A stretch of DNA of 64,000 bases. Source: Oxyruncus cristatus (taxonomy: Eukaryota; Chordata; Aves; Passeriformes; Cotingidae). Made by a program: the position numbers and the translations under genes. A model generated the notes under the pieces. It had not been told where the DNA came from, did not search any database, and was given only the letters and a program-made list of their open reading frames with translations. Positions 26,030 to 63,242 of this stretch are shown piece by piece. The stretch covers positions 385,051-449,050 of the forward strand of contig VXAY01002362.1 in assembly GCA_013399855.1 (NCBI GenBank). Direction: 5' to 3'. Position 1 is the stretch's first letter. Each line of letters opens with the position of its first letter.

Positions 26030-26860
26030 GATTGACCTGACTGGACGCCACATACCCACCAACGCGGCTCTGTCACTCTCCTCCTCAGCTACACAGAGAG
26101 AAAAATATAACAAAAGGCTCATGGGCTGAGATAAGGGCAGGGAATATCACTCACCAGTTGCCACCACAGGCAAAACAGACTCAGCTCAGGATGTTTGGTT
26201 TCATTTATCACCAATCAAATCAGAGTAGGATAATAAGAATAAACCCCAAATCCTAAAAACACCTTTCTTTCCCCCACTCTTCTCTTCTTCCCAGGCTCAA
26301 CTTCACTCTCAAATTATCTAGCTCCTCCCACCTACTGGTGTAGGGGAATGGGGAATGATAGATGCAGTCAGTTCATCACACATTGTCTCTGCCACTCCTT
26401 CCTCCTTAGTGGAAGGACTCCTTACACTCTTCCCTGGCTCCCATGGGAGACAGTCAGTCCTCCATGAACTTTTCCAGTGTGGGTCCCTCCCACAGGCTGT
26501 AGTTCTTCAGCGACTGCTCCAGTGTGGGTCCCTTTGTAGTGCAGTTCTTCAGCAACAAGTTGCTCCAGAGTTGGTCCTGCGCAGGGTCACAAGTCCTGCC
26601 ACTAAACCTTCTCCATCATGTGCTCCTCTCTCCATTGCTTTCACAGGTCCTGACAAGATCCTGCTTCAGCGTGGGCTTCCCACAGGGTCACAGCCTTCTT
26701 CAGGCATCCACCTGCTGGCTGCAGATGGATCTATGCTCCCCCATGGACCGCAGTTGGGCAGTCTGCCTCACCACAGTCTTCACCAGGGTCTGCAGGGGAA
26801 TCTGTGCTCCAGTGCCTGGAGCAACTCCTCCCCCTAACTCAGCCTGACTGAGTCTAACTC
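26030..26860 (-). mobile_element. ERV-derived LTR-type repeat with internal G+C-rich imperfect units
   Basis: The left part (about 26040-26340) is LTR-like and includes CAATCAAATCAGAGTAGGAT. The right part (26440-26830) is made of imperfect units of roughly 45-55 bp, each beginning like TCCAGTGTGGGTCCCTCCCA and ending like CAGTTCTTCAGCAAC. Units start near 26466, 26515, 26563, 26612 and 26668. I recognise this composite from many neoavian genomes as ERV LTR material, read from the minus strand; I cannot name the family. A 160-codon plus-strand frame (26355-26837) is a by-product of the repeat and is not a gene. Confidence 0.68.
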
Positions 26861-38914: not shown

Positions 38915-40073
38915 TGGAAGACCAACATTCAGAATCTAAGCAAAGAACACAGAAACAAGTAGGAACAAGTAGGAGAAATTTTAGGAAAACAGAAATATAC
39001 TGAAAAGAACTAGCAGGATTAAAAAGGGTTCTAGGAAAGGCAAAGGACAAAGAAACTGACAAGTCCCTTTGCTTTCCAGATGAATGCTAATTGCAAGCAA
39101 AACAAGAATAGGGGAAAGAAGGAAGCTAAATCAGTCAAATCAGTTTCCTTCCCAAGTGAAAATTTACCCTTTTTCACCAACTCAGGAATACTGAGGTTTT
39201 TGCAGTCCCATTCCTGTCCCACAAACTCGCAGCGATCAGAAAAAGTCCAGGAAGAAAGCTGAGGGCTGGGTTACAGCTGCTCTCAAAATTGAGCAGCAAG
39301 GCAAATGAAGCCTCAGGCAATAGAACTGCACTGACAGGAAACTTAATGGAAAGTGTTGTATTAATTACCATGAAATAAATATGCTATAAGAGTCAATGAT
39401 ATTAGTAAGATCCTGTCATTCTCCAGTCCTAAGCAGTTAACGGTGGTTCAAAGAGCTGAGTGCATCTGTTCTGTCTCATGATAACCACCACTAGTAAATC
39501 CTTCTGCAGACCTCTAACAAAGAAAACTCATCTAGAACATTCTGGGTTTAAAAGGAAAATCTTACTTAACATTTCGACAGCACAACTTTCAGCTGCAAAG
39601 CATTTCAAGAATCATTCCCATCCCTACAACAATCTTCAGAAGAAAAAACATGAGCTGAGCTGGTCTAAAGCTCCTGCTAAAATCTGAACCATTTCTCTTA
39701 ACAGAAGTCTACATACAAAAGAGTAATGAAACTATAAAAAAATAAGTGATATGTATATAAAGGCATTTGGCAATCTTTTGTATTGGCTCACTCAAACTCA
39801 CTGCTGGACACAACTCTCAGTCTTATCAGCGAATTCAAGACCTGTCAAATGGCCACGGTCTCAGACTCTTCCTGGCCTCGTTGTAGCTGTCCCACTGTCC
39901 CAAGATGCACACCAATGTTGCAAGACACTCAGTTATTGACTGGCACAGCCAGAGACTTCTTAATAAAAAGCAAACTCTGAAAAGGAGAAAAACCAAGTGT
40001 CCTGGTTTCAGGAAAACAATGAAGAAAGATTTAAGAACAGAAGGGCGAAAACTTTGCAGTTGAATTCCTATTG
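38915..40073. other. Intergenic flank of the chimeric insertion
   Basis: Unique-looking sequence, slightly richer in G+C at about 39790-39950. It supplies the false start (ATG at 39997) of the long frame that runs into the LINE fragment. Confidence 0.55.
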
Positions 40074-40084
40074 TCTGTCATGTA
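40074..40084. repeat. Left target-site duplication of the chimeric insertion
   Basis: tctgtcatgta, identical to 41005-41015. It marks the left border, immediately next to the tRNA-Pro 3' end. Confidence 0.88.
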
Positions 40085-40137
40085 GGGCTCGTCCGGGATA
40101 TGAACCCGGGACCTCTCGCACCCTAAGCGAGAATCAT
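40085..40137 (-). pseudogene. Truncated tRNA-Pro(AGG) sequence
   Basis: On the minus strand this reads as tRNA-Pro from the D-arm 3' side to the acceptor 3' end. It contains the anticodon arm TTCTCGCTTAGGGTGCGAGA with AGG anticodon, the variable loop, the T arm (GGTTCATATCC, one change from the B-box consensus) and GGACGAGCCC. Similarity to vertebrate tRNA-Pro is near-complete over 53 nt. The 5' acceptor strand and most of the D arm are absent, so it cannot fold as a tRNA or act as a gene. Its 3' end coincides exactly with the left target duplication. There is no encoded CCA; the next bases are TACA, which belong to the duplication. Confidence 0.9.
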
Positions 40138-40959
40138 GCACCTCAGGAAGTCCCCCATCATCCCCACATCACCATTGGCCAAACAGAACTCAACCCAGTC
40201 CAGCAGTTTAATTACCTAGGCAGCCTCATCTCCTCGGATGGTAAGATTGACGGGGAGATAGACAACAGGTTAGCAAAGGCATATAGTGCTTTTGGAAAGC
40301 TCCATAAAAGAGTCTGGCGAAATAAACACCTGAAGAAAAGTACAAAGATCAGTGTTTACAGAGCCATAGTGCTGTCTACTCTCTTATATGGCTCTGAATC
40401 TTGGGTCATCTACCGCCACCACCTGCGTCTCCTAGAACGCTTCCATCAACGCTGCCTCCGTACGATCCTTAACATCCACTGGTCAGATTATGTGACCAAT
40501 ACTTCTGTTCTGGAACAAGCAGCAGTCACAAGCATTGAGGCCATGTTACTGAGAACACAGCTGCGTTGGGCAGGGCACGTCTCCAGGATGAAGGACCACC
40601 GCCTCCCTAAGATCCTGCTCTATGGTGAACTTGCCACCGGCTGCCGCAAGAGAGGAGCCCTGAAGAAAAGATACAAGGACTCCCTGAAACAACATCTCAG
40701 CCTTGGCCATATTGACCTCCACAACTGGTCTACTCTGGCCTCCAATCGGGAGTCCTGGAGACACACCATCTACAACGCTGTTGATGCTTTTGAGAAAGCA
40801 CGCAGGATCACCCTTGAGGAGAACAGACAACGCAGAAAGAATCGTGCCTTGCAGAATTTACCATCTAAGGAGTCTTTCTGCTGTGCCTTCTGCAATCGGA
40901 CTTGCCTATCTCGTATTGGCCTTTTTAGCCACCAACGCGCTTGCAACAAACGTGGGTAG
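40138..40959 (+). pseudogene. C-terminal fragment (about 273 codons) of a non-LTR retrotransposon endonuclease-reverse transcriptase
   Basis: The frame is open from before the element to TAG at 40957-40959. Only the last about 273 codons (from 40138) belong to the LINE; the apparent ATG at 39997 is in flanking DNA. Visible landmarks are FNYLGSLISSDG (thumb-side end of the RT), LLYGSESW, RFHQRCLRTIL, QLRWAGHVSRM, RLPKILLYGEL and RGALKKRYKDSLKQHL. The C-terminal zinc finger is C-X2-C-X12-H-X4-C (CAFC...H...C, about 40882-40944). The YADD catalytic motif and the endonuclease domain are missing, so it is inactive. I recognise this C-terminal type from LINEs of fish and invertebrates, often annotated as endonuclease-reverse transcriptase or 'craniofacial development protein 2-like'. 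It differs from CR1 ORF2. The exact clade (RTE-like or other) needs a database match. Confidence 0.87.
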
Positions 40960-40973
40960 AGCAATTCCCAAAT

Positions 40974-40987
40974 CTTTGTTCGCAAAG
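40974..40987 (+). other. 3'-end stem-loop of the LINE (CTTTG-TTCG-CAAAG)
   Basis: A perfect 5-bp stem with a TTCG tetraloop lies 15 nt after the stop codon, inside the 45-nt 3' tail. 3' hairpins are known recognition elements for some LINE reverse transcriptases. That role here is inferred. Confidence 0.55.
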
Positions 40988-41004
40988 CCTAGCCATGAAA
41001 AGAA

Positions 41005-41015
41005 TCTGTCATGTA
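41005..41015. repeat. Right target-site duplication of the chimeric insertion
   Basis: tctgtcatgta, identical to 40074-40084. It marks the right border after the A-rich LINE tail. Confidence 0.88.
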
Positions 41016-58219: not shown

Positions 58220-58851
58220 CTGTTGAGTAATAATAAAAAGCTTTCAGAAGCAGTAAAAAAACAGAAGCATTCTCTTTAGAATCTAATTCAAGTGTTCAAG
58301 AGAAGTCCAAGGTTTGAGTTTTTTTTTTTAAACTCTTATGAAAGTATTCATGATATATATTTTGGCTTTTATGCCTTGACAAAGAATATTTAAAACTAGA
58401 AAATGGCTATTGTGCCCAATTGGTGACAAAGAAATTGTTAACTCTAAGTTCTAAAAATTAAATCAAAAACTTATCCCTTAGATTAAAAAAAAAAGCAAAG
58501 AAAAGACTTTGCATGTTCCAATTCATGATTCCCTTCAGTGGAATTCTTCTCTGTAGAGAATGAAAGTTCAGCCCCCTGAATTTATGCTATTTCTGACACC
58601 CCTAGGTTCATGAGCTATTGTGTGGTATTCAAAAGTCACCAGTGCTCATAATTTACAGTCTAACCCCAAGACAGATCCTGGGACACTCAAAACATCACAC
58701 AGACAACAACTGAAAACAATCATCCTGCTATCACTGTATTGTGAAGTGCTGGTATGTGAAATGCTATTGAAATTGAGCTTCAATGAATCTACAGCCTGTT
58801 AAGACATGCATGTAAGTCCCTGCAGCAGCACTGCATGAAACAGAATGTAGC

Positions 58852-59985
58852 ATCATAGAATGGTTTGGATTGGAAGGGACCTTTAAAGGTCATCTAGTTC
58901 AACCCCCCTGCCACAGGCTGGGACATCTTCAACTAGATCAGGTTGCTCAGAGCCCCATCCAGCATGCTTATGTATTTACAGTGATGGGGCATCCACCACC
59001 TCTCTAGGCAACCTGTTCCAGCGTTACACCATCGCAAAAATTTTCTTGTTCACATCTAGTTTGAATCTACCCTCTTTTAGTTTAAAATCATTACGTCTCT
59101 TTTTGCCACTACAGGTGCTACTACAAAGTCTGTCCCCATCTCTTCTGTAAGTTCCCTTTAAGTACTGAAAGGTCGCAACAAGGTCTCCCCAGAGTCAGGT
59201 CTTCTCCAGGTTGAATAACCCCAACTCTCTCAAGTTGTCTTTATAGGAGAGGAACTCCAGCCCTTGATGCTACACCCTCTGATCACATTTACAGCCTTCC
59301 TCTGAACGTGCTCCAACAGATCCTTATCTGTCTTGTGCTGAGGACTCCAGAATTGGATGCAGTACGCCAGGTGGAGTCTCACCAGAGCAGAAGGGCAGAA
59401 TCCCCTCCCTTGACCTGCTGCCCACACTGCTTTGAATGCAGCCCAGGATACAATTGGCTTTCTGGGCTGCAAGTGCACATTGCTGGCTCATGTCCATCCT
59501 TTCATCCACCAGCACCCCCAGGTCCTTCTCAGCAGGGCTGCTCTCAGTCTGTTCATTCCCCAGCATGTATGGATACCAGGGTTGCCCTGGCTCAGGTGCA
59601 GCACCTTGCACTTGGTCTTGTTGAACTGCATGATGTTCCCATGGGCCCACTTCTCGTCCAGGTCCCTCTGGATGGCCTCCCATTCTTCAGGCATGTCAAC
59701 TGCACAACTAAGCTTGGTGTCATCTGCAAATTTTTCTGAGAGTGCACTCAATCCCACCATTTATGTTATTAATGAAGTTATTAAGCAGGAATGACAGACT
59801 CCTGAAGAACAGCACTTGCGATTGATCTCCATCTGGACATTGAGCCACTGACCGTTATCCTCTGAATACAGCCATCCAGTCAATTCCTTATCCACTGAAT
59901 AGTCCATCCACCAAACCCACATCTCTCCAATCTAGAGAGCAGGATGTTGTGGGGGACCATGTCACACACCACTATGCAACTCTCC
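58852..59985 (-). mobile_element. CR1 LINE, 5'-truncated, minus strand, in ATPSCKMT intron
   Basis: The 3' end at 58852 reads, on the minus strand, as the CR1 terminus (GGTCCCTTCCAATCCAAACC, then ATTCTATGAT). The body encodes broken pieces of the CR1 ORF2 C-terminal region in several frames. These include [39 protein letters not shown] and [11 protein letters not shown]. At least three frameshifts or stops separate them, so the copy is dead. The 5' truncation is near 59985, within sequence resembling DIVGDHVTH-type CR1 code. The approximate left and right edges were set by where CR1 similarity stops. Confidence 0.9.
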
Positions 59986-62359: not shown

Positions 62360-63242
62360 TATTATTTGGGATCGAGTGACAACACCAAGCTGTGTGCTGC
62401 AGTTGACATGCTGGAGGGAAGGATGCCATCCAGACGGATGTTGAAAGGTGGGCTAATGCGAACCTTGTGAAATTCAACAAAGCGAAGTGCAAGGTCCTAC
62501 ACCCGGATCACAGAAAACCCAGACACACCTACAGGTTGGGCAGAGAAGTGGTTGGGAACAGCCTAGCAGAAAAAGACTTGGGGGTGATGGTTGATGAAAA
62601 ACTCAACATGAGCTGGCAGTGTGTGCTCACAGCCCAGAAAGCCAAACGGAATCCTGGGCTGCATCAAAACCAGCATATACAGCTGGTCGAAGGAGGTGAT
62701 TCTACCTCTCTACTCTGCCCTGGTGAGACCCCACCTGGAATACTGCATACAGTCCTGGTGCTCCCAACATAAGGACATGGAACTGTTGGAGCAAGTCCAA
62801 AGGAAGGCCATGAAGTTGATAAAAGGACTAGAGCACATCCCCTACAAAGACAGGCTGAGAAAGCTGGGGATGTTAAGCTTGGAGAAGAAAAGCTTTTGTG
62901 GAGATCTCAGAGCTACCTTCCAGTGTCTGAAGGGGGCCTACAGGGAAGACAGGGAGGGACTCTTAGACAGGAACTGAAGTGATAGGAAAAGGAGGAATGA
63001 GTGCAAATTGAAAGAGGGGAGATTTAGGTTATATATTAGGAAGAAATTCTTTCCTTTGAGAGTGGTGAGACCCTGGAACAGGTTGCCCAGGGAGGCTGGG
63101 GGTGCCCTGTTCAAGGCCAGGTTGGATGAAGCCTTGAGCAGCCTGGTCTAGTGGGAAGTGCCCCCACCCATGGCAGGGAGGATGGGACTAGATGATCTTT
63201 ACGGTCCCTTCCAACCCCTTAACATTCTATCATTCTGTGATT
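62360..63242 (+). mobile_element. CR1 LINE, 5'-truncated, plus strand, in ATPSCKMT intron
   Basis: The element ends in the CR1 terminus (GATGATCTTTACGGTCCCTT ... ATTCTATCATTCTGTGATT). ORF2 remnants occur in three frames: DNTKLCAAVDMLEG (62370-62420), KFNKAKCKVLHP with AEKDLGVMVDEKLNMS (62467-62620), and ILPLYSALVRPHLEYCIQSW with ELLEQVQRKAMKLIKGLEH (62700-62840). Frameshifts near 62460 and 62640 break the frame. Its orientation is opposite to the CR1 at 58852-59985 in the same intron. Confidence 0.92.

What the first reader, a model, noticed from the sequence alone, without database searches (positions are those of the whole stretch)
40074..41015. Twin-primed chimera: inverted tRNA-Pro fused to a LINE inside one target duplication
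A single 920-bp insertion, bounded by a perfect 11-bp duplication, joins two RNAs tail-outwards. The tRNA-Pro 3' end is exactly at the left border and the LINE 3' end at the right border. Both are 5'-truncated at the internal junction near 40138. That geometry is what twin priming predicts if the second cleaved end primed on a tRNA instead of the LINE RNA. Ordinary template switching from LINE to tRNA would put the tRNA in the same orientation as the LINE, which is not seen. LINE chimeras with U6 or other small RNAs are known in mammals; an inverted tRNA-Pro partner in a bird would be unusual. If many copies share the junction, it is instead a new composite family.
Basis: partly seen in the sequence, partly recalled or inferred. 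Interest (0 to 1): 0.82.

Follow-up and report, generated by a model that had tools for sequence, protein, structure and literature searches.

The report
Inverted tRNA-Pro–LINE chimeric insertion
In what looks like a suboscine (probably manakin) bird genome, a jumping-gene copy landed together with a backwards piece of a proline transfer RNA inside a single target duplication, most simply because the second cut DNA end was extended on a tRNA; the same kind of accident is already catalogued for human LINE-1.

Summary
A perfect 11-bp duplication (40074-40084, 41005-41015) brackets one 920-bp insert: antisense tRNA-Pro(AGG) positions 73 to 21 (40085-40137, ending at C73, no CCA) and a 5'-truncated LINE 3' end (40138-41004) with an open frame and 45-nt 3' UTR. 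The LINE groups with manakin copies and fits the RTE family AviRTE. At least 67 of 120 listed homologues continue in LINE frame upstream of the junction; none shows tRNA words. A protein search across the junction gave 5 LINE copies, none covering the tRNA part. Best explanation: one target-primed insertion with twin priming, the second primer extended on tRNA. The kind is known: 21 human tRNA/LINE-1 chimeras, predominantly antisense (PMC13174262), and inverted snRNA/L1 chimeras (PMC4476161) were given this model. New here: bird, non-L1 LINE, 3' rather than 5' tRNA part. The one mismatch not explained by isoacceptor is A58 to T, the m1A58 site; with A34 unedited and no CCA this suggests, but does not show, an immature tRNA template. 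Copy number and the empty site could not be tested: the genome search did not complete nine times.

The parts
40074..40084 (+). Left target site duplication TCTGTCATGTA; its 3' end is the inferred second primer
40085..40137 (-). Antisense tRNA-Pro(AGG), canonical positions 73 (left border) to 21 (junction), 53 nt, no CCA; position 58 reads T, position 34 reads A
40137..40138 (.). Internal tRNA/LINE junction, placed to within a few nt; no extra duplication seen between the parts
40138..40956 (+). 5'-truncated LINE, 273 codons open, the part downstream of the reverse transcriptase core; ends in a cysteine/histidine cluster (by eye)
40957..40959 (+). TAG stop codon of the LINE frame
40960..41004 (+). 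LINE 3' UTR, 45 nt
   Evidence: AviRTE 3' UTR stated as about 40 bp in PMC4844689
41005..41015 (+). Right target site duplication TCTGTCATGTA

Best explanation
One retrotransposition event of an AviRTE-like LINE. The bottom strand was nicked left of the 11-bp target and its 3' end primed reverse transcription of the LINE RNA, which stopped about 0.9 kb in. The top strand was cut 11 bp away, and its free 3' end (...CATGTA) was extended on the 3' end of a tRNA-Pro(AGG) molecule instead of on the LINE RNA, copying positions 73 to 21. The two cDNAs were then joined. Shown: the anatomy and the single duplication. Inferred: the order of steps, tRNA RNA as template, and that the template was an immature or trimmed tRNA.
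For: Single perfect 11-bp duplication at the outer borders. tRNA 3' end (C73) exactly at the left border. Parts in opposite orientation, both truncated inward. At least 67 of 120 listed LINE homologues continue in LINE frame upstream of the junction and 0 of 120 show tRNA-Pro antisense words; the junction search scored 7 candidates and returned 5, each covering 68% of the region, which is the share of its LINE part. Precedents with the same model: PMC13174262 and PMC4476161. The mismatch not explained by isoacceptor falls on position 58, reported as m1A in nearly all zebrafish tRNA clusters and as a misincorporation site (PMC11417395).
Against: No visible pairing between the primer end CATGTA and a mature tRNA 3' end (CCA), whereas PMC4476161 noted complementarity at inverted snRNA junctions. 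The LINE 3' end could not be checked against other copies, as there is none in the window, and the endonuclease motif was not tested. The A58 mismatch has a 1 in 53 chance of landing there by ordinary mutation, 4 in 53 for any of four recalled modification sites, and position 37 (recalled as m1G in tRNA-Pro) reads G without error. Rfam support for the tRNA is below threshold. No empty site was seen.
Confidence: 0.8

Rival explanations
1. A composite family: an earlier locus already joined antisense tRNA-Pro to this LINE piece, and its read-through RNA was retrotransposed here, so the junction is inherited.
For: The genome could not be searched. Manacus protein P0002, the window's sister in the tree (98/94; P0002 is a long, unsure row), starts its LINE homology within about 3 nt of the same place (by eye).
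Against: Inheriting the junction would need the new copy to be truncated exactly at the mature tRNA 3' end. P0002 shows no tRNA reading upstream, and the junction search found no protein with the tRNA part (low power, since only predicted proteins are searched).
Confidence: 0.08
2. DNA-level capture: the second end was repaired by copying a tRNA-Pro gene or pseudogene as filler DNA, not tRNA RNA.
For: Position 34 is an unedited A and CCA is absent, as in a gene.
Against: The break falls exactly at the mature 3' end, which has no special meaning at DNA level; T at position 58 would not be expected in a working tRNA gene (the A is a conserved consensus base in RF00005), though a later mutation could give it.
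Confidence: 0.09
3. Two separate insertions at one site: a tailless tRNA retrocopy in minus orientation and a LINE.
For: Tailless tRNA retrocopies are known (mentioned in PMC4476161).
Against: Only one duplication pair was found, at the outer borders, and none at the internal junction (repeats of 11 nt or more).
Confidence: 0.03

Closest known systems
tRNA/LINE-1 chimeric insertions of human, predominantly antisense (PMC13174262)
   Same: tRNA fragment antisense to and 5' of a LINE, one target duplication (9-19 bp in all eight cases they checked), twin priming proposed
   Different: Human cases are mostly tRNA halves, positions 1-37 most often, joined to L1; here positions 21-73 starting at the tRNA 3' end, joined to a non-L1 LINE in a bird
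Inverted U5/U1/U2/U6-type snRNA-L1 chimeras of mammals (PMC4476161)
   Same: Opposite orientation, second-strand priming model, one duplication
   Different: Those snRNAs are 3'-truncated, so primed internally, with complementarity noted at the junction; here priming is at the tRNA end with none seen
AviRTE and its SINEs in suboscines (PMC4844689)
   Same: Host group, short 3' UTR, kinship to RTEs of aquatic animals
   Different: ManaSINE1 has a tRNA-Glu-derived head and a bipartite AviRTE tail; here an antisense tRNA-Pro abuts LINE coding sequence
Ordinary twin-primed (5'-inverted) L1 copies
   Same: Two cDNAs from two primers, inversion at the 5' side
   Different: The inverted part there is LINE RNA, here a tRNA

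Membership tests
Antisense small-RNA/LINE chimera by twin priming | One target duplication at the outer borders only | tested here: met
Antisense small-RNA/LINE chimera by twin priming | Small RNA antisense to the LINE and 5' of it, both truncated at the internal junction | tested here: met
Antisense small-RNA/LINE chimera by twin priming | Empty orthologous site, both parts gained together | not testable with these tools
   no bird genome reachable; the genome search unanswered
Antisense small-RNA/LINE chimera by twin priming | Junction not inherited from a composite family | tested here: inconclusive
   5 hits of 7 candidates, none covering the tRNA part; 0 of 120 with tRNA words; proteins only
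Antisense small-RNA/LINE chimera by twin priming | Endonuclease cleavage motif at the target | not tested
   no motif for this LINE was at hand
AviRTE (RTE clade LINE) | Presence in suboscine birds and kinship with suboscine copies | tested here: met
   15 suboscine rows plus the window form one side of a branch, 100/100; the window and 6 manakin rows form a set, 97/89
AviRTE (RTE clade LINE) | 3' UTR of about 40 bp | tested here: met
   45 nt; value from PMC4844689
AviRTE (RTE clade LINE) | Nucleotide match to the AviRTE consensus, ORF of about 3.2 kb | not testable with these tools
   the consensus is in a supplement not readable here; this copy is truncated
AviRTE-mobilised SINE (e.g. ManaSINE1) | tRNA-derived head followed by a tail from the AviRTE 5' and 3' UTRs | tested here: not met
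   the tRNA is antisense and abuts LINE coding sequence

The most novel reading that the evidence does not exclude
The insert is a molecular fossil of the tRNA's chemical state at the target site: the LINE reverse transcriptase extended the second primer on a nuclear, 3'-trimmed but CCA-less and not yet deaminated (A34) pre-tRNA-Pro, and misread m1A58 as T. Such chimeras across genomes would then report which tRNA intermediates the LINE machinery meets in the germline.
Probability: 0.25. Interest if true: 0.6.

Novelty: new member of a known kind. Interest (0 to 1): 0.36.

Why it matters
It would extend tRNA twin-priming chimeras from mammalian L1 to another LINE clade and to birds, so that use of a foreign RNA by the second cut end looks like a general trait of target-primed insertion rather than an L1 quirk. 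The position-58 mismatch suggests a testable way to tell RNA-templated from DNA-templated small-RNA insertions.

Tried and rejected
SINE reading: rejected, the tRNA is antisense and has no SINE tail. Retroviral primer-binding-site reading: rejected, 53 nt of tRNA run far past the 18 nt of such a site (length recalled). Template switching along one cDNA: would give the same orientation (stated in PMC13174262). Other copies of the insert in the window by blastn (word 7, E up to 1): none. Viral contigs: for the LINE protein P0001, 3 stretches matched a pattern and none was confirmed; for a vertebrate-type tRNA-Pro pattern, 0. Pfam on the LINE part: 4 families at E up to 1, none above its curated cut-off. 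Rfam: the tRNA did not appear in the 2,001-base search and only below threshold in the 87-base one.

Literature: searches returned 0 papers; one search returned 17 papers, whose titles and abstract starts show no bird or RTE case of this type; one search returned 10 AviRTE papers, one of them opened; one search listed 30 of 86; one search listed 6; one search listed 5 of 860. I found no inverted tRNA chimera of a bird or RTE LINE in print within; the library lacks most subscription journals. Papers opened, passages only: PMC4476161, PMC4844689, PMC11417395, PMC12217144; passages plus sections 11 and 18: PMC13174262. No paper was read whole.

Full report
What is there. The insert at 40085-41004 (920 bp) lies between two perfect copies of TCTGTCATGTA. 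Within it, 40085-40137 is the reverse complement of tRNA-Pro positions 73 to 21 and 40138-41004 is the 3' end of a LINE in plus orientation. Against the printed human Pro_TGG_3-1 (PMC12217144, passage) 51 of 53 positions agree; the two differences are position 34 (A, so the AGG isoacceptor) and position 58, A to T. Against a human AGG sequence that I recalled, position 58 is the only mismatch in these 53; the local alignment itself ran over 59 positions with two more mismatches in the last six, which I assign to the LINE because homologues encode QPAPQE there. Rfam's tRNA model did not reach E 1 in 2,001 bases; in 87 bases it aligns to the segment at 14.4 bits, below its gathering score of 29, with U at the conserved T-loop A. 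Canonical numbers follow from the T loop and the anticodon in the 72-mer.

The LINE. Its frame is open for 273 codons to TAG at 40957. The search with 276 residues returned 750 proteins among 1721 candidates, 120 listed. The four best are from Pseudopipra, Manacus (two) and Pitangus; Myiozetetes, Willisornis and Corapipo follow, mixed with Penaeus, Narcine, Branchiostoma, fishes, molluscs, corals, a turtle and unnamed sources. In a tree of 31 rows that I chose, the 15 named suboscine rows plus the window are one side of a branch at 100/100, and the window with 6 manakin rows forms a set at 97/89; 14 of 28 inner branches are under 80 and four rows are long, P0002 among them. This points to a suboscine, probably manakin, source; the organism is not known to me otherwise. 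AviRTE is reported in suboscines, with a 3' UTR of about 40 bp and kinship to RTEs of aquatic animals (PMC4844689, passages). The fit is good but the consensus was not compared.

Is the antisense tRNA part of the LINE? In 67 of the 120 listed homologues my pattern (KKTEVLHQP and variants, directly upstream of the junction) is present; the other 53 start later, differ, or were missed by the pattern. None of the 120 holds the antisense tRNA-Pro peptide words that I looked for. A search with residues 38-100 of the window frame, across the junction, scored 7 candidates and returned 5 proteins, each covering 68% of the region, which equals the share of its LINE part (43 of 63 residues). Predicted proteins are a weak proxy for genome copies.

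How it arose. Second-end priming on a tRNA explains in one step the orientation, the exact tRNA end at the left border, the inward truncations and the single duplication. In human, 21 tRNA/LINE-1 chimeras are listed, predominantly antisense, typically half-length, and ascribed to twin priming (PMC13174262, sections 11 and 18; passages). For snRNAs, 7 of 30 retrotransposon-associated copies were given this model (PMC4476161, passages). The present case has the tRNA 3' part (21-73) instead of the 1-37 part most often seen in human.

What the tRNA says about itself. Three features go together: no CCA, A rather than G at position 34, and T at position 58. Zebrafish data report m1A58 in nearly all tRNA clusters, misincorporation at such sites, and G read at several A34 sites because of inosine (PMC11417395, passages; that tRNA-Pro-AGG is one of them, and that m1A is commonly misread as T, is recalled). 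An end-trimmed nuclear precursor would show all three. Against this: one mismatch in 53 nt is what a modest age would give by mutation, its chance of hitting 58 is 1 in 53, or 4 in 53 for any of four recalled sites, and position 37, reported as m1G in many clusters, reads G without error. About 4% of possible substitutions in the LINE frame make a stop (103 of 2457), so the open frame suggests a fairly young copy but does not date it. That T58 would spoil a working tRNA gene is recalled knowledge of the T loop and B box.

What stays open. The copy number, the empty site, the LINE's exact 3' end and the host's tRNA-Pro trailers need the genome, which did not complete in nine calls. The primer end CATGTA does not pair with CCA, so priming was either without pairing or on a trailer. 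The near coincidence of the LINE start with that of P0002 is unexplained.

Noticed in passing
window 40136-40138; protein P0002 residues 117-123: Manacus candei LOC127471424 (P0002), the window's sister in the tree, starts its LINE homology (in a shifted frame, LHLRKSS) within about 3 nt of the window's LINE start, with different, non-tRNA reading upstream: shared truncation point, splice-model artefact or chance.
   Followed up: partly
window 58849-59720 and 62382-63236: Inverted pair of repeats, 68% identical over 888 aligned positions; translations look like the CR1 reverse transcriptase end (recalled, not searched).
   Followed up: no
window 39967-40959: Flank, antisense tRNA and LINE happen to share one stop-free frame of 330 codons; the flank and tRNA share looks accidental.
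   Followed up: partly
window 26322-26837: Stop-to-stop frame of 171 codons with repeated FQCGSL/LQCGSL wording; not identified.
   Followed up: no
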